54,038 nt of DNA, taken from positions 1 to 54,038 of the forward strand of contig CAIMOJ010000017.1 in the NCBI GenBank assembly GCA_903843045.1, written 5' to 3'. Source of the DNA: Candidatus Uhrbacteria bacterium. Lineage in GTDB: Bacteria > Patescibacteriota > Patescibacteriia > UBA9934 > GWF2-40-263. A program made the position numbers and the translations under genes. Positions 7,622 through 44,615 of the stretch are shown in pieces. Every line of letters starts with the position of its first letter. The first letter of the stretch is position 1. Under the pieces are notes generated by a model. That model ran no database searches, had not been told where the DNA came from, and was given only the letters and a program-made list of their open reading frames with translations.

Positions 7622-7635
7622 CGGACACGGCGGGT

Positions 7636-7787
7636 GCGGATACGGTGGGGTATCGGAATTCGGATCTTACGGAATTACGGAACTGCGGATGTTCGGATAT
7701 ACGTACGTCCGTAGTTCCGAACATCCGCAAATCCGAAGTTCCGAACATCCGCAAGATCCGAATTCCGATACCCCACCGTATCCGTAC
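7636..7787. repeat. Long palindromic element A1
   Basis: About 150 bp with 31-bp perfect arms: left GGATACGGTGGGG...TCGGATCTT, right its exact complement ending CCCCACCGTATCC. The centre is built of short CGGA/TCCG words such as TTCGGAACTTCGGAT. The element at 9243-9365 is its reverse complement with about 25 bp missing from the centre. The two flank the gene at 7933-9186. Confidence 0.85.
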
Positions 7788-7793
7788 CCATCA

Positions 7794-9221: not shown

Positions 9222-9242
9222 TACGGATACGGTGGGGTACGG

Positions 9243-9365
9243 ATACGGTGGGGTATCGGAATTCGGATCTTGCGGATGTTCGGAACTTCGGATTTACGGA
9301 TATCCGAACATCCGCAGTTCCGTAATTCCGTACGATCCGAATTCCGATACCCCACCGTATCCGTA
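9243..9365. repeat. Long palindromic element A2
   Basis: About 125 bp, the inverted and centrally shortened copy of A1, with the same 31-bp arms. An extra 18-bp unit (TACGGATACGGTGGGG type) precedes it at about 9222. Confidence 0.85.
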
Positions 9366-9377
9366 CCGTCTCCGTAC

Positions 9378-9406
9378 TTGACAGCCTTTTCCCCCGGTGT
9401 TACTTT
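9378..9406 (+). promoter_or_regulatory. Promoter of nrtR
   Basis: TTGACA, 17-bp spacer, TACTTT. The last bases of the -10 are part of the palindrome at 9404-9424. Confidence 0.8.
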
Positions 9407-9424
9407 GTGTACATCAGACACAAA
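9404..9424. promoter_or_regulatory. Candidate NrtR operator (autoregulatory)
   Basis: A perfect 21-bp inverted repeat, TTTGTGT-N7-ACACAAA, overlaps the -10 and probable start site of nrtR. NrtR proteins are known to bind roughly 21-bp palindromes. Two related 21-bp sites lie before pncA. Confidence 0.65.
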
Positions 9425-9435
9425 CACTCCACCCT

Positions 9436-10113
9436 ATGACCCAACCCAAACAACCAGCCGAGCAAAGCATCAAGGTCGCCACGGACGCCGTGATCTTTAC
9501 CGTCCGGCGCGGGGAGCTCATGGCGCTTCTCATCCAGATGAAGAAGGTTCCGTACACCGGCAAGTGGGCCGTGCCGGGCGGGATCATCGGGCAGGCCGAG
9601 ACCACCGAGCAGGCGGCACGACGCATCCTGACGACGCAGACCGGGGTGAGCGACGCGCACCTCGAGCAGCTGGCGACGTTCGACGATCCGAAGCGCGACA
9701 AGCTCGGACGCGTGATCAGCGTGGCGTACGTGGCGCTCGTGGCGAGCGAGAAGGTGATCCTCAAGACGACCGAGAAGTACGCGGACGTGCGCTGGTGGCC
9801 GACGAGCAAATTGCCGGCGCTCGCGTACGACCACAAGGACATGGTCGCCGTGGCCGTCGATCGCCTGCGCGCGAAGCTCGAGTACACGAACGTGGCGTGG
9901 AGCCTGCTCCCTCCGCAGTTCACCCTGACCGAGCTGCAGGAGATCTACGAGATCATCCTCGGGCGGCCCGTCGACAAGCGCAACTTCCGGCGGCGCGTGC
10001 TCGACCTCGGCATCGTGGTCGGGACCGGGACCAAGCGGATGGGAGGCGCGCACCGTCCCGCGGAACTGTACGCATTCAAACGGCGAAGCATGGAATACAT
10101 CGAGGTGCTGTAA
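9436..10113 (+). CDS. nrtR: NrtR-type NUDIX-related regulator of NAD metabolism
   Basis: A protein of 225 residues. Residues 10-150 form a NUDIX-like domain (AVPGGIIGQAETTEQAARRI). The catalytic box REUxEExGU is changed to RRILTTQTGV, so the metal-binding glutamates are lost, as in NrtR sensors that bind ADP-ribose or NAD rather than cleave it. Residues 155-225 match the NrtR winged helix (LTELQEIYEIILGRPVDKRN, then FRRRVLDLGIV). The ATG at 9436 is chosen because the in-frame GTG at 9397 lies inside the promoter. No Shine-Dalgarno is visible. It heads a cluster of NAD salvage genes and probably represses it. Confidence 0.9.
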   Translation: MTQPKQPAEQSIKVATDAVIFTVRRGELMALLIQMKKVPYTGKWAVPGGIIGQAETTEQAARRILTTQTGVSDAHLEQLATFDDPKRDKLGRVISVAYVALVASEKVILKTTEKYADVRWWPTSKLPALAYDHKDMVAVAVDRLRAKLEYTNVAWSLLPPQFTLTELQEIYEIILGRPVDKRNFRRRVLDLGIVVGTGTKRMGGAHRPAELYAFKRRSMEYIEVL

Positions 10114-10123
10114 GCGCGGGGAA

Positions 10124-10142
10124 GGCGGCCGGCAAGGCCGCC
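10124..10142 (+). terminator. Hairpin after nrtR
   Basis: GGCGGCC and GGCCGCC around a 5-base loop, followed by TCTCTCC rather than a full T-run. A weak terminator or attenuator. Confidence 0.5.
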
Positions 10143-10159
10143 TCTCTCCAGCCCGATTG

Positions 10160-10180
10160 TTCGTGTAACTTCTACATGAA
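10160..10180. promoter_or_regulatory. Candidate NrtR operator O2
   Basis: TTCGTGT-N7-ACATGAA, 21 bp with six of seven arm pairs. It matches the nrtR site in length and core TTYGTGT/ACAYRAA. It lies about 105 bp upstream of the pncA -35. Confidence 0.55.
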
Positions 10181-10189
10181 CATACCCCG

Positions 10190-10210
10190 TTCGTTCGGAT
10201 CGGACACGAA
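10190..10210. promoter_or_regulatory. Candidate NrtR operator O3 (weaker)
   Basis: TTCGTTC-N7-ACACGAA, 21 bp with five of seven arm pairs. It starts exactly 30 bp after O2, so the two would lie on nearly the same face of the helix. Confidence 0.4.
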
Positions 10211-10266
10211 GTGCGACAAATTTTTGCCAAGGCTGGTCATTTTTCCAGGATTCCTCTGGTTCCCCC

Positions 10267-10295
10267 TTGACGAAACCGAAGAAATTGGCTAATAT
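10267..10295 (+). promoter_or_regulatory. Promoter of the pncA-nadE operon
   Basis: TTGACG, 17-bp spacer, TAATAT. An 80-base leader follows, with an AGCCG/CGGCT stem around 10322-10346. Confidence 0.75.
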
Positions 10296-10375
10296 CAGGC
10301 ACTCTTTGGAGTCTTTACCCAAGCCGCCCGCATCCCGCGGACGGCTAGGAAGAAGACTTCAAAAAGGAGCGTTCC

Positions 10376-11140
10376 ATGTCGGCACCACACCCGATCGTTC
10401 GTACGGTCGAAGGCCCCATCATCATCAACGACGTCCTCTGGGCGGTCCTATCCGTGGACATCATGCGCACGTTCATGATGGGCGGCGGCCTCGGCGTACA
10501 GGGCGGACACGAGATCGTCCTTCCGGGTCTGAGGATGATCCGCAAGTTCAGCCGGGAATTCCGGTACGCACTGATGGACATCCACGCGCCCGGAAGCGTC
10601 TCCATCGTCACCAGCTTCGTCGGGTACGAGGCGTTCTACAAGCTCACCTATGACGAGGTGAAGGGGTGGACCCCGAAGAAGAACCGGATCGCCGCGCACG
10701 CGCGATTCACCCTGCGGGAGCTCAAGCGGTACCTGCGGAAGGTCGGCTTCCAGATCCTCTGGCCCGAACACGCGATGGAAGGTACGGACGAGGCCCGCGT
10801 GGAGCCCGAGATCCTCAACGAGTCAACGCTCCCGTGGTTCAAGGGCAACCGTCCGCACTCCGACTCGAATTCCGGATTCGAGGAGAACGACGGGCACGAC
10901 ATCGGTCTCGGCGCTCAGCTCTGGTGCCGAGGAATCAGGAAAATCGTGGTGTGGGGAATCGCGGGCGACGTCTGCGCGGGTCTCACGGCGCTGCACGGAG
11001 CCAAGCGGGGCTTCGAGGTCTACTTCGTCACCGACCTCTCGCCGTGCATCAGCCCCGAGGGCCGCGACGCGATGTACCAGCGTCTCATCGACGCCGGCGT
11101 CCACCTGATCACCTCCGACCAGATCCAGCAAGCGGCCTGA
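10376..11140 (+). CDS. pncA: Nicotinamidase
   Basis: A protein of 254 residues of the isochorismatase/nicotinamidase fold. It converts nicotinamide to nicotinate and ammonia. Visible motifs: SVDIMRTF with the catalytic aspartate (about 28), a GGLGVQGG segment, LWPEHAMEGTDEA (family WPxHCxxGTxGA, a metal-site region), KGNRPHSDSNSGF with the catalytic lysine (family KGxxxxxDSYSAF), and WGIAGDVCAGLTA with the nucleophilic cysteine near 200. AAGGAG lies 7 bases before the ATG. It is the first gene after the operon promoter and feeds pncB downstream. Confidence 0.9.
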   Translation: MSAPHPIVRTVEGPIIINDVLWAVLSVDIMRTFMMGGGLGVQGGHEIVLPGLRMIRKFSREFRYALMDIHAPGSVSIVTSFVGYEAFYKLTYDEVKGWTPKKNRIAAHARFTLRELKRYLRKVGFQILWPEHAMEGTDEARVEPEILNESTLPWFKGNRPHSDSNSGFEENDGHDIGLGAQLWCRGIRKIVVWGIAGDVCAGLTALHGAKRGFEVYFVTDLSPCISPEGRDAMYQRLIDAGVHLITSDQIQQAA

Positions 11141-11148
11141 CCGCTCTC

Positions 11149-11175
11149 CCCGAGACGCTCTCGGGACTTTTCTCC
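11149..11175 (+). other. Junction hairpin 1, pncA/nadD-nadK
   Basis: CCCGAGA-CGC-TCTCGGG followed by ACTTTTCTCC. Same form as the other operon junctions: a possible weak terminator or RNA processing element. Confidence 0.65.
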
Positions 11176-11234
11176 GGATGCTTGCGCCGTGCAGGCCGCC
11201 GAACAGAAGTCACTCGGAACCAGGAGACCTTTCC

Positions 11235-12641
11235 ATGAACATCGTCCTATTTGGCACGAGCGCGAACCCGCCGACGCGGGCGCATCGGCTGGCCGCGGAA
11301 CAGCTTGCCAGGGTCTTTGACCGCGTGGTCGTGATTCCGTGCGGGATCCGTCCGGACAAGCACACGACCAACGTGGTGAGCGTGGTCCACCGGGCGCGGA
11401 TGTGCCAGATGGCATTTTCCGGGATCCCCAACGTCGAGATCGACCTGTCCGATCTCGAACGAACGGAATTCATGACGACCGTCGAGCTCGACCGCCACTG
11501 GAAGCGGCGCGAACCGGGCGCGGACATCTGGCACGCGGTCGGGTCCGACCTGATCCGCGGCGGACGAAGCGGCGCGTCGGACATCCAGCGCGAATGGCGC
11601 GAAGGCAGCACGGTCTGGCAGACTCTGCGCTTCGCGGTCATTCCGCGGCAGAGGTATCCGTTCTCCGACGACGATCTCCCGACGCTCGGGCGCGTCATGG
11701 CGTTCGAGATTCCGGACCATTCGAGCACGGAAGCGAGGCGTCTCCTGTCCTCCGGGCAGAACGCAAGCGACATCGTCTCGCGACGGGTGGCAGAGTATGC
11801 GCTGCGGTTCGGCCTGTACGGATTCGCTCCCGGCAGCCGGACGGAAGGGCGACTGCTTCTCCCGTCAGGCCCGAGTCTGTTCGTGGTCCCGGACCTGAAC
11901 AATCCGGCCGCCGTCCGCCGCGCACGGCGGCTGACCGGCCAGTGCGAACGGCCCGAGGACGCCGACATGATCGTGGCGATCGGCGGCGACGGTCACATGC
12001 TACACGTGATCCGGCAGACGCACCGGCATTGCGTCCCAATTCTCGGCCTCAACGCGGGCCACGTGGGATTCCTGCTCAACGAGCTGTCTCCCGAGGCGCT
12101 CAAGTCGCGCATCGCGGCCGGCGTTCCGTTCACCACGCACCTGCTCCCGATGCTCGCCGTGAGCATCCGGGGGATCGACGGAACGTGGGGCGACGAGCGG
12201 CTGGCATTCCAGGACGCATGGCTCGAGCGGTCCGGAGAGCAAACCGCGCGATTCAAGATCGGCGTCGAGGGACGGAGAACCCGCGCGTTCCAGATCACGT
12301 CCGACGCCATCCTCGGATCCAACCCCGCCGGATCCGGCGCGTATGCCGGCTCGATGGGCGCGCCGCTCATCCCGCTGAACTCCGCGTCCCTGATCCTCGC
12401 GGCCGGATGCGTGGCTCGTCCGAGAAACTGGACGCCAAAGCTGCTCGCAAACGGAACGCGCCTGACCTTCGAGGCGATGGAAACGGAAAAGCGTCCGGTC
12501 CGGGCGGTCATCGACGGATTGGGACACGGACCGGCAATCGGCATGCGCATCCGCCAGAGCGTGCTCGCCGGCGTGGAACTCGCCTTCGACCCGGAACTCA
12601 CGCTCGACCAGAAGATCGAGGACCTGTCCTTTCCAGCCTGA
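11235..12641 (+). CDS. nadD-nadK: Bifunctional NaMN adenylyltransferase / NAD kinase fusion
   Basis: A protein of 468 residues with CAGGAG before the ATG. Residues 1-205 are NadD-like: FGTSANPPTRAHR at the nucleotidyltransferase motif, where TxAH replaces the usual HxGH, and IPDHSSTEARR near 155 (family ISSTxxR). This part would make nicotinate adenine dinucleotide from NaMN and ATP. Residues 210-468 are NAD kinase-like: IGGDGHMLHV (catalytic GGDG), LGLNAGHVGFLLNE (family INxGxLGFL), and GSGAYAGSMGAPLIP in place of the family TGSTAYxxSAGGPI. This part would phosphorylate NAD to NADP. The fusion links the steps before and after NadE. The altered motifs leave activity to be shown, though both folds are clear. 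Confidence 0.85.
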   Translation: MNIVLFGTSANPPTRAHRLAAEQLARVFDRVVVIPCGIRPDKHTTNVVSVVHRARMCQMAFSGIPNVEIDLSDLERTEFMTTVELDRHWKRREPGADIWHAVGSDLIRGGRSGASDIQREWREGSTVWQTLRFAVIPRQRYPFSDDDLPTLGRVMAFEIPDHSSTEARRLLSSGQNASDIVSRRVAEYALRFGLYGFAPGSRTEGRLLLPSGPSLFVVPDLNNPAAVRRARRLTGQCERPEDADMIVAIGGDGHMLHVIRQTHRHCVPILGLNAGHVGFLLNELSPEALKSRIAAGVPFTTHLLPMLAVSIRGIDGTWGDERLAFQDAWLERSGEQTARFKIGVEGRRTRAFQITSDAILGSNPAGSGAYAGSMGAPLIPLNSASLILAAGCVARPRNWTPKLLANGTRLTFEAMETEKRPVRAVIDGLGHGPAIGMRIRQSVLAGVELAFDPELTLDQKIEDLSFPA

Positions 12642-12645
12642 CCCT

Positions 12646-12672
12646 TCCGAGACGCTCTCGGATCTTTTCTCA
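12646..12672 (+). other. Junction hairpin 1, nadD-nadK/draG
   Basis: TCCGAGA-CGC-TCTCGGA followed by TCTTTTCTC. Confidence 0.65.
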
Positions 12673-12720
12673 GGAACCCCACCGCCGGTGGGGAGTCTGA
12701 CCGAAGACAACGTTCTTTTC
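12663..12720 (+). repeat. 58-bp direct repeat, copy 1, before draG
   Basis: Almost identical to 13863-13920, exactly 1200 bp downstream. It holds TCTTTTCTCAGG, a CCCCACC-GCC-GGTGGGG hairpin (12677-12693), and CTGACCGAAGACAA next to the ribosome binding site. Confidence 0.85.
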
Positions 12721-12733
12721 AGGGAGACATTCC

Positions 12734-13798
12734 ATGTCATTCAGAGATCACATCGTCGGGTGCGCCGTCGGCGTCACCCTCGAGGCGCTCGGCGTCCCGC
12801 ACGAGACCATCACGCCCGAGGAAATCCTCGCGCTCACGAACGGCGCCGGGCTCACGGGGCTTCACCCCGCGCTCAAGCCGCCGGCGTTCCACAGCGTCAC
12901 GCGCATCCCGCTTGGCGGAACGTCCGACGACTGGCAGCTCTGGCGCGCGGTCGCGCGGTCGCTCATCGCCCGCAGGGGCGAGTTCGACGCGATCGACATG
13001 GGCCGCGAGCACGTGCTCGAGCTCAACCGCTGCACGGACGGATGGGGATCGAGCACCGAGGACGGCGCGCGACGCATCGAGCGCGCGCTCGACTTCGGCG
13101 GCATCGAGCGCCTCTACCCCGAAATCCCGCCGCGCACACCGCATCCTCCCATCCCGGGCGAGGATCCGAACGCGAAGGGATGCGGCAACGGCGTGGCCAT
13201 GAAGGTCGGCCCGCTCGCCATCGCGTCGCTCCGATTTGAGAGCCGCGACAGGTGGCTTTGGGAAAGCTGTCAGAAACTCGGCGAGCTCACCCACCCGAAC
13301 CCGCGCGCATGGATCGCGGCCTACGCCCTGGCCTGGTGCATTCGCGAGTGTCTGCACCGCGCCGAGATCGGAGAGAGGCCGTTCCGCGAGGGATGGGCCC
13401 CGGACGAGTTCCTCCACACGCTCCTCAACGTGATGACCTGTCACGAACCTGTCGGCGGAGATCGCGTGGAAGACCGGCTGCGCCGTCTCCGGCAGCCCGG
13501 CGTCCTCCGTTCGGCCGAGGCGCTTCGCGAGGCGACCGGAACGAGCTGCTACGCGCTCGAGTCCGTCCCGTTCGTCATCGGCACCTTCCTGCGCCATCCC
13601 GCGAACGTCCGCGCCGGAGTCCTCGAGACGCTGAACGCGGGCGGCGACACGGACACGAACGTGGGGATGTACGCCTCGCTCGCCGCCGCGAACGAAGGCT
13701 ATCGCGCGATCCCGAAGAAATGGCTCGCCCAGATCCCGAACTCCCGCCAGGCGTTCGCGCTCGGCGAGGCGCTCTACAATCTCCACGAGAGGCACTAG
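12734..13798 (+). CDS. ADP-ribosylglycohydrolase family protein (DraG-like)
   Basis: A protein of 354 residues. Family motifs: GCAVGVTLEALG at the N-terminus (usual GxxxGDALG), GGTSDDWQLW near 57 (usual TDDT metal site), GCGNGVAMKVGPLAI near 155 (usual GNGAxMRxxPlg), and NAGGDTDTNVGMYASLAAANEGYR near 300 (usual GGDTDTxgai, binuclear Mg site). The enzyme removes ADP-ribose from modified proteins or small ADP-ribosylated molecules. The conserved DTDT makes activity likely; the first metal site is TSDDW, slightly changed. In this operon it would return ADP-ribose for recycling. GGGAGA precedes the ATG. Confidence 0.85.
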   Translation: MSFRDHIVGCAVGVTLEALGVPHETITPEEILALTNGAGLTGLHPALKPPAFHSVTRIPLGGTSDDWQLWRAVARSLIARRGEFDAIDMGREHVLELNRCTDGWGSSTEDGARRIERALDFGGIERLYPEIPPRTPHPPIPGEDPNAKGCGNGVAMKVGPLAIASLRFESRDRWLWESCQKLGELTHPNPRAWIAAYALAWCIRECLHRAEIGERPFREGWAPDEFLHTLLNVMTCHEPVGGDRVEDRLRRLRQPGVLRSAEALREATGTSCYALESVPFVIGTFLRHPANVRAGVLETLNAGGDTDTNVGMYASLAAANEGYRAIPKKWLAQIPNSRQAFALGEALYNLHERH

Positions 13799-13872
13799 CC
13801 TCCGTCCCTCAAGCCATTCTCGGCTTGTCCTCAATAGCTCCCGCTCAGGAGCGACGGAGGAATCTTTTCTCA
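13799..13872 (+). other. Branched hairpin at the draG/pncB junction
   Basis: CCTCCGTC (from 13799) pairs with GACGGAGG (to about 13861). It encloses AAGCC/GGCTT and GCTCC/GGAGC hairpins, so a three-way junction can form, followed by AATCTTTTCT. The block TTGTCCTC-N-ATAGCTCCCGCTCAGG recurs after the nucleoside hydrolase gene (17915). Confidence 0.6.
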
Positions 13873-13920
13873 GGACCCCCACCGCCGGTGGGGAGCCTGA
13901 CCGAAGACAATACCCTTTTC
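13863..13920 (+). repeat. 58-bp direct repeat, copy 2, before pncB
   Basis: Partner of 12663-12720, with the same CCCCACC-GCC-GGTGGGG hairpin at 13877-13893. Confidence 0.85.
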
Positions 13921-13933
13921 ACAGGAGGCACAC

Positions 13934-15220
13934 ATGTGCATGGCACAACGCGGGCTGATCGAGGAAATTCTCGACGGTCCGGTCGTCGGCGGAATGCTCG
14001 ACGACGACTTCTACACCGAGACCATGGGACAGTTCGTCCACGAGCGTCACCCGGACGTCGAGGTCGTCCTCGGGCTGAAGAACCGCTCGAAGGAACGGCT
14101 CGCCGAATCGGTCGGCGAGAACGAGCTCGGCGACGAGCTGACGCGGCTGCAGGCCCGTCGCTTCACCAGGACGGAGCTGCACTACGTTCTCGGCACGGAC
14201 GAGTACGGCGACCGGATGTTCCGCACGCCGTACATCCGGCACCTCGAGGCGTTCCAGATGACGCCGTTCGACCTCTCCGCAAGGGACGGGCAGTTCCATC
14301 TCCAATTTCCCGGCCAATGGAAGTTCGCCATGCGCTGGGAGGTCCCGGCGCTCGCCACCATCAACGGGCTGCGGACGCGCAACCGCCTTCGCGGGATGTC
14401 CAGCGGGGAACGCGACCTCGTCATCGCGACCGGCATCACCCGGCTGTGGGAGAAAATCCGCACCATCAGGAAGTATCCGAAGCTCACGTTCACGGACTTC
14501 GGGACGCGGCGCAGATTCCACCGCGCGTGGCAGCGCTACGTCGTGAAGACCCTGCGCGACGAGCTTCCCGGCCAGTTCCTCGGCACCTCGAACACCGAGG
14601 CTGCCATGGACTTCGGCGTCATGCCGATGGGCACGAACGCGCACCAGCTCTACATGGTGATCGCGGCCATCCTGTCCGCCACGGACGAGAGCCTCGTCGC
14701 CTCCCACAACCTCGTGCTGCGCGAGTGGTGGAACCTGTACGGCTGGACGCTGTCGATCGCGCTCACCGACACCTTCGGGAGCGACTTCTTCTTCCGAGAC
14801 TTCACGGCCAAGCAGGCCGAGGAGTGGAAGGGCCTGCGCCAGGACTCCGGCGACCCGGTCGCGTTCGGGCACAAGGCGCTCGCGTTCTACCGCAAGCACG
14901 GCATCAACCCCATGGACAAGCTGCTGATCTTCAGCGACGGCCTCGACATGGAGATGATCGTCCGGCTGTGGCTCGAATTCGAGGGCCAGATCAAGGTGTC
15001 GTTCGGCTGGGGCACGCTTCTCACGAACGACCTCGGCCTCAGCGCGATCTCGATCGTCATCAAGGTCCTGGCCGCGCGCCTGAACGCGGATTCCCCGTGG
15101 GTGGGAACGGTGAAGCTCTCGGACAACATCGAGAAGGCGATGGGCTCCGCCGAGGACATCGAGCGATACAAGCGCGTCTTCCAGTACCTCACCACCTACG
15201 CCGCGGAGTGCCGCGTCTGA
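13934..15220 (+). CDS. pncB: Nicotinate phosphoribosyltransferase
   Basis: A protein of 428 residues. It condenses nicotinate with PRPP to NaMN, the step after PncA. Motifs of the PncB family are plain: LDDDFYTETMGQ near 22, WEVPALATIN near 137, FTDFGTRRRFHRAW near 191 (usual DFGTRRRxS), FLGTSNTEAA followed by MPMGTNAHQLYM (usual GTSNxxxA...PxGTxAHE), and LRQDSGDP near 307. Length fits bacterial PncB. AGGAGG precedes the ATG; the third codon is another ATG. It lies directly upstream of a PRPP synthase gene, which makes its co-substrate. Confidence 0.9.
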   Translation: MCMAQRGLIEEILDGPVVGGMLDDDFYTETMGQFVHERHPDVEVVLGLKNRSKERLAESVGENELGDELTRLQARRFTRTELHYVLGTDEYGDRMFRTPYIRHLEAFQMTPFDLSARDGQFHLQFPGQWKFAMRWEVPALATINGLRTRNRLRGMSSGERDLVIATGITRLWEKIRTIRKYPKLTFTDFGTRRRFHRAWQRYVVKTLRDELPGQFLGTSNTEAAMDFGVMPMGTNAHQLYMVIAAILSATDESLVASHNLVLREWWNLYGWTLSIALTDTFGSDFFFRDFTAKQAEEWKGLRQDSGDPVAFGHKALAFYRKHGINPMDKLLIFSDGLDMEMIVRLWLEFEGQIKVSFGWGTLLTNDLGLSAISIVIKVLAARLNADSPWVGTVKLSDNIEKAMGSAEDIERYKRVFQYLTTYAAECRV

Positions 15221-15277
15221 GCGAGACCGTCTCGCTTCTTTTCTCCAGGCAACGAGCGCATTCCGCGTTCGCTGCCT
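15221..15277 (+). other. Tandem junction hairpins, pncB/prs
   Basis: GCGAGA-CCG-TCTCGC starts at the base after the stop, then TTCTTTTCTCC, then a longer imperfect hairpin AGGCA...TGCCT (15247-15277) that ends next to the ribosome binding site GAGGTGAAG. Confidence 0.7.
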
Positions 15278-15289
15278 CGAGGTGAAGAA

Positions 15290-16231
15290 ATGGCTCTTCT
15301 CAACAGACTGCTTTTGTTGGCGACTCCCGAGATGGAGGCGGTGGCATGGACGATCAAGGCGACCGCGGCGTTCCAGGTGGACGTCGAGGTCCTTGAGTGG
15401 GACCGGCGGTTTCCGGACGGGTTTCCCGACCAGAGGATCGTGTCGCCCCTGCGCGGCAGGGACGTCTGCGTCCTCGCGTCGTTCCATTCGCCCGACGCGA
15501 TCGAGCGGCAGTCCGGCATCATCTGCGCGATCCCTCGCTTCGGCTCGCGGTCGCTGCGCGTGGTGGCGCCGTACTTTCCCGGGACGATGGAGCGCGTTCG
15601 GAAGCCCGGCGAAATCGCCACGGCCATGACGTACGCGCGGCAGTTGTCGGCGACGCCGGCCTGTCGAATCGGCGGCATGGCGGAGTTCGTCTTCTACGAC
15701 ATCCACCAGACCGGCATCCAGTTCTACTTCGGCGACGGCGTGGCCGTCCGACTGGAGACGGCGATCCCGCTGCTCAAGTCACGCCTGCACACGCTCGGAT
15801 TCTACGAGCGGGAAACCCTGGTCATGTTCCCCGACGACGGGGCGCACAAGCGGTTCGGCGACGACTTTCCCGAGTTCGACCAGGGAATCTGCGCGAAGGT
15901 TCGCGGCGAGGGCGACGAGCGAATCGTCCGCCTGATCTGCGGGAATCCGCGCGGCTGCAAGGTCGTGGTCGTCGACGACCTGATCCAGCGCGGAGGGACG
16001 ATGATCGAGACGGGGAAGCTCATGCGCGACCTGGGCGCGACCGACGTGATCGGCTTCGCCACGCACTTCGTGGGCCCCGACTTTGCCGAAGCCCGCTTCG
16101 TGCCGAACGAACCGTTCTCCCGCGTGATCGTCACCGATTCGCATCCGTCCGCGGCCCGCGTCGACATTCGCGAGCCGTTCGAAGTCCTTTCGCTCGGCGC
16201 AGCGATCGCAGCCATCATCCGCGAGGAATGA
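15290..16231 (+). CDS. prs: Ribose-phosphate pyrophosphokinase, plant-like class
   Basis: A protein of 313 residues. It makes PRPP from ribose 5-phosphate and ATP. The PRPP-binding loop VVVVDDLIQRGGTM is near residue 228 and the YDIHQTGIQFYFGD segment near 142. Several blocks match the class of PRPP synthases known from plant isozymes 3 and 4 rather than the usual bacterial class: PYFPGTMERV (plants FFPTGTxER), ETAIPLLKSRL, FPDDGAHKRF and GNPRGCKVVVVDDL. From memory, that plant class is phosphate-independent and accepts several nucleotide donors. It stands between its consumer pncB and a NUDIX hydrolase that could supply ribose 5-phosphate. Confidence 0.88.
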   Translation: MALLNRLLLLATPEMEAVAWTIKATAAFQVDVEVLEWDRRFPDGFPDQRIVSPLRGRDVCVLASFHSPDAIERQSGIICAIPRFGSRSLRVVAPYFPGTMERVRKPGEIATAMTYARQLSATPACRIGGMAEFVFYDIHQTGIQFYFGDGVAVRLETAIPLLKSRLHTLGFYERETLVMFPDDGAHKRFGDDFPEFDQGICAKVRGEGDERIVRLICGNPRGCKVVVVDDLIQRGGTMIETGKLMRDLGATDVIGFATHFVGPDFAEARFVPNEPFSRVIVTDSHPSAARVDIREPFEVLSLGAAIAAIIREE

Positions 16232-16232
16232 C

Positions 16233-16790
16233 ATGTTCAGACTATTCGCAACGCTCTACACCGGCTTCGTCTCGCTCGAGGCGTGGGCCCGCGGGAATGA
16301 GACCAAACCGATCCTCGTCGTCCGATCGACGGACTCGTGCTCCGGCCTTCTCTACGACCGACCGCGCAACCGCGTCCTCCTCGTTCGCCAGAACCGCGCG
16401 CCGATGGTGCGCGATGACAATCCCGACGGCTCCATCGTCGAGCTCGTCGCCGGACGCTTCGACCGCGCGGTCGGACCGAAGGCGCTGTTCGTCGCCGAGG
16501 CAAAGGAGGAAGCCGGCGCGAATATCACGGAAGAAGACGTGGAGCTCCTGAACGGCGGCCGGCCGATGGCCCCGTCGCCCGGAATCCTCACCGAGCGCTG
16601 CACCCTGGCCTTCGTCGAGATTCGCGAGGAGCATCTCGACGCGGGAGAAACGTTCGGCGTCGCTGCCGAGCACGAGGTCACCAATCGCGAGTGGATGTCC
16701 GTCCAAGGTTTCCTCTCCGGCCCGCACGATGACCTCCGCGTCTACACGCTCGCGCGCGAGCTCGAGTGCAGACTCCTTCGGAAGCGCTGA
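16233..16790 (+). CDS. NUDIX hydrolase, probable ADP-ribose pyrophosphatase
   Basis: A protein of 185 residues starting one base after the prs stop, so translation is coupled. Residues 60-130 follow the ADP-ribose pyrophosphatase pattern: ELVAGRFD (usual ExPAGxxD), then ALFVAEAKEEAGANI at the NUDIX box, then SPGILTERCTLAF (usual SPGxxxExxxxf). The box keeps E, E and E of the ExxEE core but lacks the canonical arginine and the first glutamate, so metal binding is partly altered. If active, it would split ADP-ribose into AMP and ribose 5-phosphate, the PRPP synthase substrate. The stop codon forms the loop of a hairpin. Confidence 0.75.
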   Translation: MFRLFATLYTGFVSLEAWARGNETKPILVVRSTDSCSGLLYDRPRNRVLLVRQNRAPMVRDDNPDGSIVELVAGRFDRAVGPKALFVAEAKEEAGANITEEDVELLNGGRPMAPSPGILTERCTLAFVEIREEHLDAGETFGVAAEHEVTNREWMSVQGFLSGPHDDLRVYTLARELECRLLRKR

Positions 16791-16838
16791 CGCTTCCGTC
16801 TTTTCTCCAGGACTCGATCGCATTCCGCGCTCAAGTCC
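16780..16838 (+). other. Tandem junction hairpins, NUDIX/nucleoside hydrolase
   Basis: GGAAGCG-CTGA-CGCTTCC holds the stop codon in its loop, followed by GTCTTTTCTCC and then a second imperfect hairpin, AGGACT...AGTCCT, before AAGGTGAAG. Confidence 0.7.
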
Positions 16839-16851
16839 TCAAGGTGAAGAT

Positions 16852-17901
16852 ATGACGTCCCCAACCAACGTTCTCATGATCGGCGATTTCGGAAAGGACC
16901 TGGACGACGAGTTCGCCCTGCTCCTTGCCGTGGCGCTCGAGCGGCTCGGATACATTCGCCTGCTCGGCGTCGTCGCGAACCTCGCGCCGGCAATCGAGCG
17001 CGCGCGGCTTGCGAAGGGCACGCTTCAGACCCTCGGGCTCGGGCGCGTCCCGGTCGCGATCGGACGGCCCGTCACCGACGCGGGACGAACCTGCCCGCAC
17101 GATACGACCGTCCCGTATCTCGCCGACGCGTCCGAGCTGTCGGGCGAGGGGATCGACCTGATGCGACGGGTCCTCTCGGAAGCGGACGACCGCTCGGTCA
17201 CGCTCGTCCTGAATAGCGCGTTCACGGACGCCGCCGCGCTCGCCCGATCGAGCCCCGATCTGTTCCTGAGCCGCGTCTCCCACGTCGCCATCATGGGCGG
17301 CGTTACTGAGCGCGACGGACGTCTCGTTCCGGACGACGCCGCCAACAACGCGTTCGACCCGGCCGCGGCCGAGTTCCTCTACCGCTGGCTCCAGGACAAT
17401 CGCGTCCCGACCACGGTCGTGATGCGCGAGGCGGCCTACGCGTGCCAGATGGCCGCGTGGCTTCCCGTGAAGCTCGCCGAGATCGGGCACCCGGTGGGCC
17501 TCTCCCTCGCGCGTCGGCTTCCGCTCGTGATGGACGACCTCTGGGAGGCGGTCCACGCGCCAATCGGCTCGCCGATCCGCGGGACGCTCCCGCCCTCGCG
17601 GACCCGGGACTGGTACGTTCGCACCACCACCGGCAACAAGGACCCGGGCGTGCCGGGCGACGAGACCGTCTGGCCGTTCGTGGAAACGTTCCGCCTGTAT
17701 GACCCGATGAACCTCCTCGCCGCCGTGCCGGAACTCGCGGACCGGTTCTATGACGCCGATACGTTCACGGTGAACGGCACCGCGCACAAGGTCATCGGGC
17801 GCACCAAGGAATGCAACGGCATCCGCGACCCGCTGGCCCTCCGCGAAACCCTCGCGCAGTTCGCCACCGAGGCGCTTGCCCCGTTCGCCGGCGAGGACTA
17901 G
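16852..17901 (+). CDS. Nucleoside hydrolase (IU-NH family)
   Basis: A protein of 349 residues from the ATG at 16852 (AAGGTGAAG upstream); the longer frame runs back over the NUDIX gene. The N-terminal calcium-binding motif is DFGKDLDDEFALLLA (family DtDpGxDDxxAl). AIMGGVTERDG near 145 and NNAFDPAAAEFLY near 165 match the family middle (GG...N...DPeAa). Family members cleave the N-glycosidic bond of nucleosides to base and ribose, and some act on nicotinamide riboside. That makes salvage of nicotinamide or purine from nucleosides the likely role here. Specificity is inference. Confidence 0.8.
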   Translation: MTSPTNVLMIGDFGKDLDDEFALLLAVALERLGYIRLLGVVANLAPAIERARLAKGTLQTLGLGRVPVAIGRPVTDAGRTCPHDTTVPYLADASELSGEGIDLMRRVLSEADDRSVTLVLNSAFTDAAALARSSPDLFLSRVSHVAIMGGVTERDGRLVPDDAANNAFDPAAAEFLYRWLQDNRVPTTVVMREAAYACQMAAWLPVKLAEIGHPVGLSLARRLPLVMDDLWEAVHAPIGSPIRGTLPPSRTRDWYVRTTTGNKDPGVPGDETVWPFVETFRLYDPMNLLAAVPELADRFYDADTFTVNGTAHKVIGRTKECNGIRDPLALRETLAQFATEALAPFAGED

Positions 17902-17915
17902 CTCCTCCTCGCCTT

Positions 17916-17987
17916 GTCCTCCATAGCTCCCGCTCAGGGGCGACGTAGGACTCTTTCTCCCGGCCGCCGAATCGTCGACGCCCGGGA
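17916..17987 (+). other. Tandem junction hairpins, nucleoside hydrolase/radical SAM
   Basis: GTCCT...AGGAC outer stem and GCTCC...GGGGC inner stem, followed by TCTTTCTCC, then a second imperfect hairpin CCCGGC...GCCCGGG. Confidence 0.65.
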
Positions 17988-18011
17988 CCGAAGAAATGCA
18001 AGGATACCCTC

Positions 18012-18932
18012 ATGCAACTGCGAGCTCTTTCCCTTTCGATCATGACGAGCGACCGCGAGAACTGCAACGCGGGATGCCAGTTCTGCATCTCGCGAACCAC
18101 CCCGGGCGACGTCATCGACCCGCGCGAACCGAAGCACTGCTCCGAGGCGCGGCTCCAGGTCGCGCTCGGCTACGCGAAGGCGCTCGGCGCCACGCACGGG
18201 ATCCTGACCGGCAAGGCCGACCCCACGCAGGAGAAGCCCGAGTACCTGTGCGGGCTGGTGCGAAGCGTCCGCCAGCACCTTCCACTGTGCGACATGCACA
18301 CGAACGGCTTCCTGCTGCACCCGGGCAAGAACCGCGAGCACCTGCTCGCGGGGCTCGTGGACGCGGGCCTCACGATGGTCACGCTCTCAATCGCAAGCTT
18401 CGACGAGGACGGGAACCGCGAGCTCATGGGCATCCGCCAGAGCGCCGCGGAGCTCATCCCCCTCGCGCGCGAGCTCGGCCTCATGGTCCGGTGCTCGCTC
18501 GTGGTCTGCAAGGGCGGAGCGAGCAACACCGATGAGGTGCTCGCGTACGTGCGACAAGCCGGCGAGCTCGGCGCCCAGTCCGTGGTCGTCCGCGAGGTGT
18601 GGCGCCCCGAGGTGCTCACCCCGGTGAACGAGCGCGTCTACGCGTGGAACCACGAGAACGCCATCGAGATCCAGCCCATCGAGGACGATATCGCGGATAT
18701 CGCGGAAACCAAGGGGAACCCGCACAGTCTCCACAAGCTCTACACGCTGCCGTGGGGCCGCAAGGTGTTCGCGTTCGGCGAAGGGACCTTCCGTGACCCG
18801 AGCCACGCCGTGCAGGTCGTCGTCTCCACGAGCGGAGACAACTTCCGCGGTGGTACCTACCAGACCCTCGTCCTCCGCCCCGACGGCAACGTCTACGGCG
18901 GATGGGAAAGCAAGGGCTCCATCCTCGCCTGA
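18012..18932 (+). CDS. Radical SAM protein of unknown role in NAD operon
   Basis: A protein of 306 residues. CNAGCQFC at residues 18-25 is the CxxxCxxC motif that binds the radical SAM 4Fe-4S cluster. GILTGKADPTQEKPEY near 63 resembles the GGE region, and LVVCKGGASNT near 166 and VVVREVWRPEV fit later strands of the barrel. There is no second cysteine cluster, so no SPASM domain is seen. AAGGA lies before the ATG. Position between a nucleoside hydrolase and a DUF1152 gene, with matching junction hairpins, makes it part of the operon. The reaction is unknown. Confidence 0.8.
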   Translation: MQLRALSLSIMTSDRENCNAGCQFCISRTTPGDVIDPREPKHCSEARLQVALGYAKALGATHGILTGKADPTQEKPEYLCGLVRSVRQHLPLCDMHTNGFLLHPGKNREHLLAGLVDAGLTMVTLSIASFDEDGNRELMGIRQSAAELIPLARELGLMVRCSLVVCKGGASNTDEVLAYVRQAGELGAQSVVVREVWRPEVLTPVNERVYAWNHENAIEIQPIEDDIADIAETKGNPHSLHKLYTLPWGRKVFAFGEGTFRDPSHAVQVVVSTSGDNFRGGTYQTLVLRPDGNVYGGWESKGSILA

Positions 18933-18933
18933 T

Positions 18934-19014
18934 CGCGACCGTCGCGGTCTTGTCCTCCGAAGCTCGCCGAGCAATGAGGACTCTTTTCTCCAGCCGCCGA
19001 AATCCTCGGCGGCT
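18934..19014 (+). other. Tandem junction hairpins, radical SAM/DUF1152
   Basis: A small GCGAC/GTCGC hairpin, then GTCCTC...GAGGAC with an inner GCTC/GAGC stem, then TCTTTTCTCC, then a perfect AGCCGCCGA-N5-TCGGCGGCT hairpin (18992-19014). Confidence 0.75.
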
Positions 19015-19031
19015 GGATCCAAGGAGATTGA

Positions 19032-20141
19032 ATGCCACGCTTCAGCAACGTCCTCTTCGTCGGAACCGGCGGGGGAAACGACATCTTCTCGACAGCGCTC
19101 GCGATGCTTTCGCTTCGCCGGGCAGGGTACGAGTGGGATTCCTGCTCCGTCGCGGGAGTGCTCAGCCCGTTCCATCGTTACCGCGGACTGACTCGAACGG
19201 AATGCAAGCACGTCGATTCCATTCCCGACCGGGAAATCAAGCGCATCGTGCCGTGCCTCGTGGACGTCATCGAGCTCGACATGGTCGAACGAACGGTCGC
19301 GTCGCTCGCCCGGGCCGAACGGGACCTGAACGTCGGCGCGGTCTACGGACTGTCGCTGACCGAGGGAACGAGCGGTCTGGAGGAAGCGTTCCGCTGGCTC
19401 GCGTCCACGCATGACTTCGTTGTGCTCGTGGACATCGGCGGCGACATCCTGTTCCGCGGGTTCGATACGGATCCGCGCGTGCTTTCCCCGATGTTCGACG
19501 CGATGGTCCTCGAGGCGTTCTGCGCGTCCGGAGCGCCGGGCATCCTGTTCGAGGCCGGCCCGGGAACGGACGGCGAGATCAGCCCCGGGTCGCTCAAGGA
19601 AACGCTCCTTGACCCGACGGTTCAGAGCTGTCCGCTCGCGGCGTCCGTCGTCGACGAATGGGATCGGCTGTTCCGAACGCACGTCGAACCCGTCCGTGCC
19701 GGCCGCACGGTCCCGAAGACCATCGAGGCATTCCGGTCCGAACGGCCATCGCTCACCCTCGACTACCGCGCGCGATGCCACCTTGGCAAGCGGCGCTGGT
19801 ACGCGACGTTTCCCCACGAGATCGACACGGCCCTGAACCGTTCCTTCTACCTCGTCCCTCCCAAGTGGGCGCGACGCCGCAACCCCTTCTGCGTTCCCTG
19901 CCGATCCGTTGAGGAATGGATCGGGATGACGCGGCAGCCGGGCTGCCATGTCAACGGGGAGTTCCAGTTCGAATATCTGACCGCGGACAGGAGCGTCTGG
20001 CTCCTTGCGCTCCCGTCCCCGCTGTTCACGCCCGACCAGCGGAAGGAGATGGTCGACGCGGCATTCGAGGACGCGCGCCGCGGCAACTGCCACGGCGTGA
20101 TCGTCGACGGCCCGGAAGGCCTGGTCTGCCGCACTTCGTGA
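19032..20141 (+). CDS. DUF1152 family protein
   Basis: A protein of 369 residues. It begins with LFVGTGGGNDIFSTALAM, the DUF1152 glycine loop, and has VLVDIGGDILFRG near 135 followed by SPMFDAMVLEAF, both typical of that family. The fold suggests a nucleotide- or phosphate-binding Rossmann-like enzyme, and no activity is firmly known to me. AAGGAG precedes the ATG. The operon location, between radical SAM and nadE, is the best clue: a link to nucleotide or NAD recycling is inference. The stop codon lies in the stem of the next junction hairpin. Confidence 0.75.
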   Translation: MPRFSNVLFVGTGGGNDIFSTALAMLSLRRAGYEWDSCSVAGVLSPFHRYRGLTRTECKHVDSIPDREIKRIVPCLVDVIELDMVERTVASLARAERDLNVGAVYGLSLTEGTSGLEEAFRWLASTHDFVVLVDIGGDILFRGFDTDPRVLSPMFDAMVLEAFCASGAPGILFEAGPGTDGEISPGSLKETLLDPTVQSCPLAASVVDEWDRLFRTHVEPVRAGRTVPKTIEAFRSERPSLTLDYRARCHLGKRRWYATFPHEIDTALNRSFYLVPPKWARRRNPFCVPCRSVEEWIGMTRQPGCHVNGEFQFEYLTADRSVWLLALPSPLFTPDQRKEMVDAAFEDARRGNCHGVIVDGPEGLVCRTS

Positions 20142-20197
20142 TCCGGCTCGGATCACTCTTTTCTCCAGCCCTCGAGCGCATGTCGCGCTCGAGGGCT
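20138..20197 (+). other. Tandem junction hairpins, DUF1152/nadE
   Basis: GTGATCCG-GCT-CGGATCAC contains the TGA stop, followed by TCTTTTCTCC, then AGCCCTCGAGCGC...GCGCTCGAGGGCT (20167-20197). Confidence 0.75.
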
Positions 20198-20233
20198 CGA
20201 AACGAAGAGCACCTTACACTCGGAGAAAACAAC

Positions 20234-22270
20234 ATGGGAACCAAGCCCTACATCGTTCGCGGTCGCAGCAAGACGCTCGGGTTCGCCCGGGTCTCGCTCG
20301 CCACCTTCTGGACCAAGGCCATGGACGTGCCCGGCAACCTCACCAAGCACATCGAGATGGCATTCGCGGCCGAGGAGGCCGGCGCGCAGATCTGCGCGTT
20401 TCCGGAGCTCGGAATTTCCGGGTACAACTGCAAGCAGGCCTTTCGCGACCGCATGATCCAGGTTGCCTCGCTCGAGGCGCTTCGCACGTTCTGCGTGCGG
20501 ACGTCCTCGAGCCGGACCGTATTCGTGGTCGGACTGCCGCTCGCGCTGGAGAAGATCTTCAACGTGGCGGTGTTCGTGAGCCACGGCAAGGTCATCGCGA
20601 TCATGCCGAAGAGCTACCTCGCCGCGCGCGGCGAATGGCAGGAAGGCGACTACTTCTCCGCGGCCAAGGAGCTCTCGCAAACCGAGATCAAGCTCGACTG
20701 GCAGGAGGAGATGGTTCCGATCGGCACGGACATCCGCGTCCAGGTGCTCGACGAGAACGAACAGCCGCAGTTCGTGACCGCGGCGGAGATCTGCGAGGAC
20801 GGCTGGCAGAGCAACTCGCCCGGCGACCGTCACGCGCACAACGGCGCGCACGTCATTGCGAACCTGTCCGCGTCCAACTGGATCCTCGGCAAGGACAGCT
20901 GGAGGCGCGTGACGTTCCCGGCCAGCTCGGGTCGGCAGAAGTCGGTGTACCTCTATGCCACCGGCGCGGATTCCACCTCCTCCGTAGTGTGGGACCAGCA
21001 CTGCATGATCATCGAGGACGGCGCGATTCTCGGCGAGACCAAGCGCTGGACCGTTCCGCAGAAGGACCCGCCCGAGCTGCTCGTGCGCGACGTGGACATC
21101 GACAAGCTGATCCACGACCGCCAGGCCGACGGCGGCTGGAACGCGGCCGCGGAGGCCAACAGGCACCCGTACCGGGACGTCGTCACGCACGCGCGCGGCT
21201 ACGTCCCGAACGCGAAGGACTTTCGGCGCCCGCTCACGCGGCTGCCGTTCGTCCCCGCGGACCCGGCGGCCATGAAGCGCGTGGGCGAGGAGCTGTTCAA
21301 CGCCCTCACGCAGGGCCTGCTCGGCCGCGCGATCCACGTCACGGGAAGCATCGAGCGCCCGCTCGACGGCTACATGGGCCTGTCGGGAGGATTGGACTCG
21401 GCCCTCGCGTTCATCCTCTGCTGCGTCGGCTACGACCGCGCCGGCTGGAGCCGCACGCACATGTACGCGGTGCGGATGCCCGGCCCCGGGTCGAGCAAGC
21501 ACACCCAGAACGATTCGCTGCGGCTCGCGGAAGCCATGGGCGCGTCGATTGAGACCGTGGACATCACCGAGATGGCCGCTACCGACCTGCGCGCCACCGG
21601 CCACGAGCCGTGCTGGGACTGCGAGAAGTGCGAGAACGCGCAGGCCCGCGTCCGCACGCTCGTCCTCAAGACCTTCGGGTTCAACTGGGGAACAGGCGAC
21701 ATGGACGAGGGCGCGAAGGGCTGGTGCACCGAGGGCGGCGACCAGTCGAGCATGTGGCACGTCATCGCCAACATGCCGAAGACGCTGGTGCGGTTCCTGG
21801 TGCTCTACTTCATCGAGTACCTGGCAACCCCGGAGGAACGCAAGTCCCTCCGGAGCATCCTGCGCACGGTGATCTCTCCGGAGCTCCGCAAGCGCAAGCC
21901 CGGCCAGAAGGCGCAGGCGTCGGAAGACAAGATGGGGCCCTACGACCTCACCGGATTCTTCCTCTACCACATCCTCCGCACCGGCGGGGAACCGGAGCGC
22001 ATCGCGTTCCTCGCGGAAGTCGCGTTCGGACGCGCCGAGCGCTCCGTGAAGGACGCGATCTACGACCGCCGCATGATTCTGCGATGGCTCAGGGACTTCT
22101 ACGTGAAGTTCAACTGGTCGCAGTTCAAGCGCCAGACCGCGCCCGACTCGTCGCTCACCGGCTCGATCGGCCTCGGCCAGCACGACAAGCTCCGCTGGCC
22201 CACCGACGGCTCGTCCGTCGTCTGGTCAAACGAGTGCGACCGCCTCATCGCCGAGCTCGGCACGGCATGA
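20234..22270 (+). CDS. nadE: Glutamine-dependent NAD+ synthetase
   Basis: A protein of 678 residues, the length of the mycobacterial-type enzyme. It amidates nicotinate adenine dinucleotide to NAD with glutamine as nitrogen source. Residues 15-300 are the nitrilase-like glutaminase: glutamate in FPELGISGY, lysine in MPKSYL, cysteine in AAEICEDGW. Residues 330-678 are the synthetase: GLSGGLDSALAF (PP-loop), ENAQARVRT and WGTGDMDE. An unusual CWDCEKC cluster directly before ENAQARVRT is not part of the enzymes I remember. CGGAG precedes the ATG at 20234; the long upstream frame overlaps the previous gene. Last gene of the operon. Confidence 0.92.
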   Translation: MGTKPYIVRGRSKTLGFARVSLATFWTKAMDVPGNLTKHIEMAFAAEEAGAQICAFPELGISGYNCKQAFRDRMIQVASLEALRTFCVRTSSSRTVFVVGLPLALEKIFNVAVFVSHGKVIAIMPKSYLAARGEWQEGDYFSAAKELSQTEIKLDWQEEMVPIGTDIRVQVLDENEQPQFVTAAEICEDGWQSNSPGDRHAHNGAHVIANLSASNWILGKDSWRRVTFPASSGRQKSVYLYATGADSTSSVVWDQHCMIIEDGAILGETKRWTVPQKDPPELLVRDVDIDKLIHDRQADGGWNAAAEANRHPYRDVVTHARGYVPNAKDFRRPLTRLPFVPADPAAMKRVGEELFNALTQGLLGRAIHVTGSIERPLDGYMGLSGGLDSALAFILCCVGYDRAGWSRTHMYAVRMPGPGSSKHTQNDSLRLAEAMGASIETVDITEMAATDLRATGHEPCWDCEKCENAQARVRTLVLKTFGFNWGTGDMDEGAKGWCTEGGDQSSMWHVIANMPKTLVRFLVLYFIEYLATPEERKSLRSILRTVISPELRKRKPGQKAQASEDKMGPYDLTGFFLYHILRTGGEPERIAFLAEVAFGRAERSVKDAIYDRRMILRWLRDFYVKFNWSQFKRQTAPDSSLTGSIGLGQHDKLRWPTDGSSVVWSNECDRLIAELGTA

Positions 22271-22278
22271 CCGCATCT

Positions 22279-22304
22279 CCCGCTTCGTCTCGAAGCGGGT
22301 TTTT
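22279..22304 (+). terminator. Terminator of the NAD operon
   Basis: CCCGCTTCG-TCT-CGAAGCGGG followed by TTTTT. It is the only operon junction with a full intrinsic terminator. Confidence 0.9.
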
Positions 22305-25799: not shown

Positions 25800-25829
25800 G
25801 ACCGTCACTTGTGTGGCGGTCATTTTTTT
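25800..25829 (+). terminator. Terminator of the aminotransferase pair
   Basis: GACCG-TCAC...GTG-CGGTC followed by ATTTTTTT. Confidence 0.8.
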
Positions 25830-25835
25830 GTAAGA

Positions 25836-27462: not shown

Positions 27463-27467
27463 ATTTA

Positions 27468-44567: not shown

Positions 44568-44615
44568 ATGGTTAAGATGTCGGAGTTCCTAAGTCGTCGT
44601 TCATCGAATCGTGTT

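What the first reader, a model, noticed from the sequence alone, without database searches (positions are those of the whole stretch)
9378..22304. Self-contained NAD(P) recycling operon under an NrtR-type regulator
Sequence shows pncA, nadD-nadK fusion, draG-like, pncB, prs, NUDIX, nucleoside hydrolase, radical SAM, DUF1152 and nadE in one direction after nrtR, with one strong terminator at the end. Known pathway logic: PncA-PncB-NadD-NadE-NadK makes NADP from nicotinamide. The extra enzymes could recycle the other half of spent NAD: DraG releases ADP-ribose, NUDIX gives ribose 5-phosphate, Prs turns it into PRPP for PncB. If the genome is Patescibacteria, where de novo NAD synthesis is commonly missing, such a complete loop would be notable. 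It may serve heavy NAD use or resist NAD-depleting defence.
Basis: partly seen in the sequence, partly recalled or inferred. Interest (0 to 1): 0.85.

Follow-up and report, generated by a model that had tools for sequence, protein, structure and literature searches.

The report
NrtR-controlled NAD salvage operon in Uhrbacteria
A tiny-genome bacterium that apparently cannot make NAD from scratch keeps one operon, under an ADP-ribose-sensing type of repressor, that rebuilds NAD and NADP from nicotinamide; relatives keep the same kind of operon, with an unexplained radical enzyme and repeated RNA hairpins between the genes.

Summary
In detail: eleven co-directional genes (9436-22270) encode NrtR, PncA, NadD-NadK fusion, DraG, PncB, PRPP synthetase, Nudix, XopQ-like nucleoside hydrolase, radical SAM, DUF1152 and glutamine-type NadE. 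The contig is chromosomal, from a 'Candidatus Uhrbacteria' (Patescibacteria) genome. QRPTase (NadC), obligatory for de novo NAD, is absent from all 73 genomes of its order, so this operon is the apparent NAD route. The same operon type, with varying accessories, occurs in about 17 other patescibacterial genomes. An operator learned only from relatives scores highest in the window exactly before nrtR and second before pncA. Nothing ties the operon to phages or defence. Two unreported parts stand out: a MoaA/viperin-like radical SAM enzyme found only beside NAD genes or nrtR, and a covariation-supported hairpin element repeated before eight genes (also in a few other operons). Verdict: a real new variant of a known kind.

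The parts
9404..9424 (+). NrtR operator 1, TTTGTGTACATCAGACACAAA, between the promoter and nrtR
   Evidence: Best PWM hit in 54 kb (23.7 bits; PWM trained on relatives only; best null score of 30 simulated windows 15.1, mean 7.5)
10160..10180 (+). Probable NrtR operator 2, TTCGTGTAACTTCTACATGAA, before pncA
   Evidence: Second-best PWM hit (14.1 bits; above the null mean but within the null maximum of 15.1); same two-site layout in several relatives
9436..10113 (+). nrtR, Nudix-like sensor plus winged helix; degenerate Nudix box (no RExxEE)
   Evidence: PF21906 88 bits, NF050029 164 bits; motif check
10376..11140 (+). pncA, nicotinamidase-like (Asp, Lys, Cys triad present; one metal His replaced)
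   Evidence: PF00857, PRK11609
11235..12641 (+). nadD-nadK fusion: NaMN adenylyltransferase + NAD kinase
   Evidence: PF01467 + PF01513; TIGR00482 and PRK04761; fusion also in relatives
12734..13798 (+). draG-like ADP-ribosylglycohydrolase (TSDD and GGDTDT metal motifs)
   Evidence: PF03747 123 bits
13934..15220 (+). pncB, nicotinate phosphoribosyltransferase
   Evidence: TIGR01514 285 bits and PRK05321 380 bits, both above cut-off
15290..16231 (+). prs, class II-type PRPP synthetase (GTMER loop, FPDGF lacking the Glu of class I)
   Evidence: TIGR01251, PDB sequence and fold matches; class motifs from PMC13252144 compared
16233..16790 (+). Nudix hydrolase, remote AdpP/NudK relative, EAKEEAG core kept
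   Evidence: TIGR00052 31 bits, weak PDB matches; conserved in relatives' operons
16852..17901 (+). XopQ/HopQ1-like nucleoside hydrolase
   Evidence: NF041355 134 bits, PDB 7jlu/4p5f
18012..18932 (+). Radical SAM enzyme, CxxxCxxC, MoaA/viperin-like fold
   Evidence: PF04055; fold search MoaA 7.8e-12, viperin next
19032..20141 (+). DUF1152 protein, seen only in this operon
   Evidence: PF06626 68 bits
20234..22270 (+). nadE, glutamine-dependent NAD synthetase
   Evidence: PRK02628 498 bits above cut-off; PF02540 + PF00795
22279..22299 (+). Terminal intrinsic terminator-like hairpin with TTTTT
   Evidence: 9 bp stem
11167..11209 (+). Intergenic RNA element before nadDK
   Evidence: R2 18.3 bits, E 0.02
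12664..12706 (+). Intergenic RNA element before draG
   Evidence: Sequence and fold; 90% identical to the copy before pncB; not a model hit
13864..13906 (+). Intergenic RNA element before pncB
   Evidence: R2 15.3 bits, E 0.19; fold z -5.8
15238..15287 (+). Intergenic RNA element before prs
   Evidence: R2 47.5 bits (in the training set)
16800..16849 (+). Intergenic RNA element before the nucleoside hydrolase
   Evidence: R2 45.4 bits (in the training set)
17953..17993 (+). Intergenic RNA element before the radical SAM gene
   Evidence: R2 20.8 bits, E 0.003
18983..19024 (+). Intergenic RNA element before DUF1152
   Evidence: R1 33.7 bits, not in R1's training set
20158..20207 (+). Intergenic RNA element before nadE
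   Evidence: R2 45.1 bits (in the training set); fold z -5.7

Best explanation
An NrtR-controlled NAD(P) salvage operon that is the sole apparent NAD route of an Uhrbacteria cell. Shown by homology: PncA deamidates nicotinamide, PncB joins nicotinate to PRPP, NadD adenylylates, NadE amidates, NadK phosphorylates to NADP. Inferred: NrtR sits on its two operators and lets go when ADP-ribose, the by-product of NAD-cleaving enzymes, accumulates; DraG frees ADP-ribose from modified targets, the Nudix enzyme cuts it to AMP and ribose 5-phosphate, the class II Prs turns the latter into the PRPP that PncB needs, and the nucleoside hydrolase releases pyridine base from nucleosides or handles an ADP-ribose-like compound. 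Unknown: the radical SAM enzyme and DUF1152. The hairpin element between the genes probably sets mRNA processing or translation of single cistrons.
For: Gene assignments; operators; QRPTase over cut-off in 0 of 73 genomes of the order while 12 of 14 controls ring; single NadE and single PncB in the genome; conserved linkage in about 17 other genomes; DraG in four operons, Nudix in ten, Prs in four, from class II (window, G006, G267) and class IV (G247); the XopQ relative was crystallised with ADP-ribose; NrtR-type regulators sense ADP-ribose (PMC9503650).
Against: Accessories vary: most relatives lack DraG and Prs in the operon. The genome has a second Prs-like gene on contig C58, so PRPP need not come from the operon gene. 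The Nudix lacks the first Glu of the box and is only a remote AdpP relative. The window's NadK and PncA carry unusual residues (FQDAW for FNDAW, one metal His lost). No source of ADP-ribose (ART, sirtuin, TIR) was looked for in the genome. The genome is 96% complete in 76 contigs.
Confidence: 0.65

Rival explanations
1. Plain Preiss-Handler salvage operon: the core makes NADP from scavenged nicotinamide, and DraG, Nudix and nucleoside hydrolase are separate house-cleaning or host-nucleotide scavenging enzymes that merely share NrtR control; no closed loop.
For: Many relatives work with the core alone or the core plus Nudix or rSAM (G031, G016, G026, G060); second Prs elsewhere; nucleoside hydrolases appear as one or two different paralogues (G063, G062).
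Against: DraG, Prs and Nudix return to NAD operons in different patescibacterial lineages, and Prs from two classes, which is more than chance sharing.
Confidence: 0.22
2. Counter-defence: the operon rebuilds NAD after depletion by TIR or Sir2 systems, like phage NARP pathways.
For: NrtR senses the product of NADases; Prs and PncB superficially resemble Adps and Namat.
Against: Chromosomal contig with dnaA, dnaN and tig; PncB is above the NAPRT cut-offs; Prs has PRPP-synthetase class motifs; no viral relatives of rSAM, nadDK or prs; no PADLOC hits.
Confidence: 0.04
3. The operon also feeds a modified-nucleotide pathway: the radical SAM enzyme alters an NAD- or ADP-ribose-derived nucleotide made by the neighbours.
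For: rSAM found only beside NAD genes or nrtR in 12 genomes of several families; fold nearest MoaA, then SkfB and viperin; MoaA and viperin modify nucleotides.
Against: Substrate unknown; several operons lack it (G031, G065, G016, G006, G062); the window copy diverges at its C-terminal end.
Confidence: 0.12

Closest known systems
NrtR regulons of NAD metabolism (Rodionov 2008, known from its citation in PMC9503650 and PMC3680494; paper not read here)
   Same: NrtR with its palindromic site next to pnc/nad genes
   Different: Patescibacteria, nadD-nadK fusion, rSAM, XopQ-like hydrolase, DraG and class II Prs in one operon
ADP-ribose recycling to ATP and PRPP, and NadM-Nudix or PncC-COG1058 fusions (Cialabrini 2013, PMC3680494)
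   Same: The logic that the ADP-ribose half of NAD is returned through a pyrophosphatase and PRPP
   Different: There fused enzymes; here DraG, Nudix, Prs and PncB are neighbouring genes
NARP1 (Adps + Namat), phage NAD reconstitution (PMC12774641)
   Same: A PRPP-synthetase homologue beside a phosphoribosyltransferase homologue
   Different: Here a nicotinate enzyme with PRPP logic and a four-step deamidated route; no phage context
ARG-containing conflict systems with Nudix-HTH regulators (PMC9503650)
   Same: ADP-ribosylglycohydrolase with an ADP-ribose-sensing Nudix regulator
   Different: Embedded among NAD biosynthesis genes, no effector or defence gene found
Class II PRPP synthetases (PMC13252144)
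   Same: TMER-type RF loop and loss of the adenine-binding Glu
   Different: Bacterial copies inside NAD operons; loop reads GTMER, not TTMER

Membership tests
NrtR-regulated NAD operon | Nudix-like + winged-helix regulator | tested here: met
   PF21906 above cut-off, NF050029 (the latter below its strict cut-off)
NrtR-regulated NAD operon | Palindromic operator before the regulated genes | tested here: met
   best two hits of the window before nrtR and pncA; the second is weaker
NrtR-regulated NAD operon | Response to ADP-ribose | not testable with these tools
   needs binding assays
Preiss-Handler NAD salvage | PncA, PncB, NadD, NadE genes present | tested here: met
Preiss-Handler NAD salvage as the only route | No de novo route (NadC absent) | tested here: met
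   NadA and NadB not searched
ADP-ribose recycling loop | ADP-ribose pyrophosphatase activity of the Nudix | not testable with these tools
   remote AdpP homology only
ADP-ribose recycling loop | PRPP synthetase linked to the NAD operon in more than one genome | tested here: met
   window, G006, G267, G247
Class II PRPP synthetase | TMER RF loop with FLAG-region Glu lost | tested here: met
   GTMER and F(P/E)DGF in the window, L070 and G006 against the motifs in PMC13252144, which gives TTMER; no tree was built
NARP1 | Namat-type nicotinamide ADP-ribose transferase | tested here: not met
   PncB above the NAPRT cut-offs TIGR01514 and PRK05321
NARP1 | Adps instead of Prs | tested here: inconclusive
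   PRPP-synthetase motifs and fold, no direct comparison with Adps
Known defence systems | Match of the accessory genes to PADLOC models | tested here: not met

The most novel reading that the evidence does not exclude
The MoaA/viperin-like radical SAM enzyme, linked to NAD salvage across several patescibacterial families, makes or repairs a so far unknown NAD- or ADP-ribose-derived nucleotide, and the hairpin repeated before each gene is a new class of regulatory or processing RNA that travels with NAD operons.
Probability: 0.12. Interest if true: 0.85.

Novelty: new variant of a known kind. Interest (0 to 1): 0.52.

Why it matters
It shows how streamlined, probably host-dependent bacteria without de novo NAD synthesis may keep their NADP pool with one regulated operon, and it gives a testable gene set for recycling both halves of spent NAD. 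It also flags an uncharacterised radical SAM family by strict genomic association, and a structured intergenic RNA element with covariation support.

Tried and rejected
Phage or defence origin: no viral relatives, no PADLOC hits, chromosomal genes on the contig. Known riboswitch: no Rfam family at gathering score; the only weak hit, mir-615 over the palindrome at 9238-9365, is below its cut-off and judged chance. RNA element exclusive to NAD operons: rejected, because copies also occur at G000:C3:7004 and in G010, G033:C64 and G008, with hits in G093 too. I also considered that the element hides the ribosome-binding site; it fits the prs and nucleoside hydrolase copies, but before draG, pncB and nadE the ribosome-binding site lies outside it. 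The terminator scan as a whole was no better than shuffles (14 against 11.1).
Full report
WHAT IS THERE. Eleven genes run in one direction from 9436 to 22270. Pfam and NCBIfam name them nrtR, pncA, nadD-nadK, draG, pncB, prs, Nudix, nucleoside hydrolase, radical SAM, DUF1152 and nadE. PncB and NadE exceed their curated NCBIfam cut-offs. Most active-site motifs are present: PncA Asp-Lys-Cys, NadD GTSANPPxxxH, NadK GGDG, DraG TSDD and GGDTDTN, Nudix ExxEExG, rSAM CxxxCxxC, NadE glutaminase Cys. NrtR has a degenerate Nudix box, as expected of a sensor. Departures: FQDAW for FNDAW and GSGAY for GSTAY in NadK, and a lost His in PncA, when compared with relatives.

WHERE IT IS. The window is a whole contig (C17) of a 1.28 Mb, 96% complete genome. 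It carries tig, dnaA and dnaN, so it is chromosomal. Relatives sharing the operon are named 'Candidatus Uhrbacteria'; the genome in the same genus (G002) is RIFOXYB12_FULL_58_10, matched through contig length and position.

NO DE NOVO ROUTE. QRPTase, the NadC domain, is over cut-off in none of 73 genomes of the order, while 12 of 14 control genomes ring. NadE and PncB each occur once in this genome. NadA and NadB were not searched. NadE is patchy in the order (14 of 73), so many relatives may lack NAD synthesis altogether.

CONSERVED OPERON. Neighbourhoods were fetched around NadE, rSAM, PncB and RNA-element hits and compared by BLAST; G275 was read by eye. Compositions: G031 nrtR-pncA-nadDK-pncB-nudix-nadE; G065 nrtR-pncA-nadD-nadDK-pncB-nudix-GNAT-nadE; G007 and G025 nrtR-pncA-SLOG-nadDK-pncB-nudix-rSAM-nadE; G002 pncA-nadDK-pncB-nuh-nudix-x-rSAM-nadE; G063 nadDK-draG-pncB-IUNH-nudix-rSAM-nuh-nadE; G019 nadDK-pncB-rSAM-nudix-nadE; G016 nrtR-x-x-pncA-nadDK-pncB-nadE; G026 nrtR-pncA-nadK-pncB-rSAM-nadE; G006 nrtR-pncA-x-nadDK-pncB-prs-nadE; G062 nrtR-pncA-pncB-IUNH-nuh-nudix-nadE; G247 (a Buchananbacteria genome, L071) draG-nadD-nudix-pncB-nadK-x-rSAM-prs-nadE; G267 (a Parcubacteria genome, L070), on two contigs, nadD...nadK-PncB-like...rSAM and rSAM-draG-prs-nadE; G275, in another family, nadDK-nadE. 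G033, G011 and G060 hold partial versions. DraG was absent from 59 relatives at first look, so it is an occasional part; four operons have it, two of them outside the order.

REGULATION. A position weight matrix made only from eight operator-like sites of relatives was run on the window. The two best of about 54,000 positions are 9404 (23.7 bits) before nrtR and 10160 (14.1 bits) before pncA; 30 simulated windows had a mean best score of 7.5 and a maximum of 15.1. Site 1 is therefore convincing. Site 2 is supported mainly by its position and by the same two-site layout in G065, G025, G007, G011 and G031. NrtR-type regulators are known to sense ADP-ribose (PMC9503650), so derepression when NAD is cleaved is the natural reading; it was not tested.

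PRS. The operon Prs matches PRPP synthetases by sequence and fold (the fold model has a mean pLDDT of only 66). A 2026 preprint (PMC13252144) separates class II (TTMER loop, no FLAG-region Glu, relaxed nucleotide donor) from class IV (STMER). The window, G267 and G006 copies have GTMER and F(P/E)DGF and so are class II-like; the G247 copy has STMER and so is class IV-like (the printed G016 line in that call repeats L071 by a script slip, the G016 sequence itself reads GTMER). No tree was built. Recruitment of two classes next to PncB argues that PRPP supply matters for this operon. A second, different Prs-like gene sits on contig C58.

RADICAL SAM. Strong matches to this family occur in 12 genomes and every one lies beside NAD genes or nrtR. 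Only ten loci were found by the pattern scan of 84,980 species genomes, and a sample of 380 genomes across the phylum held no other than this one. Its model (pLDDT 82) is nearest to MoaA, then SkfB and viperin. MoaA and viperin act on nucleotides, hence the modified-nucleotide rival. Sequence searches alone gave no close solved relative.

NUCLEOSIDE HYDROLASE. It belongs with XopQ/HopQ1 and keeps a GDFGKDxDDE aspartate motif. XopQ was crystallised with ADP-ribose (4P5F, cited in PMC11185476). This makes an ADP-ribose-related or pyridine-nucleoside substrate plausible, not shown. The name implies nothing about injection into hosts here.

RNA ELEMENT. Eight of the gene junctions hold hairpin A, then CTTTTCTC(C/A) or a close variant, then hairpin B, then a start region. 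CTTTTCTC occurs 7 times on the + strand of the window against 0.8 expected and 0 on the other; TCTTTTCTCCAGS occurs 4 times in the whole genome, all in this operon. On 16 and then 22 distinct sequences the structure shows 9 and 10 of 18 pairs with changes on both sides; the covariation scores are 0.37 and 0.38 against 0.07-0.15 for slid controls. The second alignment was fitted to the model and leans towards it. The same element lies in NAD operons of G002, G063, G007, G025, G033, G065, G016, G026 and, in another family, G275. It is not exclusive to them. Whole-genome scans scored only part of the candidates, so counts are lower bounds. Most likely it is a processing or translation element of polycistronic mRNAs; the alternation of hairpin, U-rich strand and hairpin suits nuclease cutting between cistrons. 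This is inference.

JUDGEMENT. The core pathway is secure by homology. The recycling loop is a good hypothesis with comparative support but no biochemical test, and its logic was published for bacteria in 2013 (PMC3680494). Papers describing this operon or NrtR in Patescibacteria were not found in the library searched, which holds open-licence papers only. The operon is a new variant of a known kind; the rSAM and RNA element are the parts a specialist would not expect.

Noticed in passing
7632-7789 and 9235-9367; 25823-25971 and 27326-27475: Two single genes (7933-9186, 26105-27295; no Pfam match) are each flanked by large palindromes whose arms are about 90% complementary across the gene, like a cassette or insulated unit.
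   Followed up: no
23743-23850 and 31040-31144: About 100 nt of similar sequence repeated 7.3 kb apart.
   Followed up: no
L053 (G000:C58:6008-6808): A second, longer Prs-like protein with a GYFPLCRSDKDEG loop; similar proteins occur in many Uhrbacteria genomes.
   Followed up: partly
L023:2089-2859, L026:2070-2813: SLOG (LSDAT) domain proteins, related to the TRPM sensor domain, sit between pncA and nadDK in two relatives.
   Followed up: partly
L171:314-1021: In G001, same genus, a 77% identical nrtR with the same operator is followed by genes other than NAD genes; by eye they look like kinase and von Willebrand-type proteins.
   Followed up: partly
L124:7004-7046 (G000:C3): A further copy of the intergenic RNA element among a small array of similar hypothetical genes of about 200 residues.
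   Followed up: partly
44568-47446: dnaA and dnaN are next to each other in the window, so the origin of replication is probably nearby.
   Followed up: no
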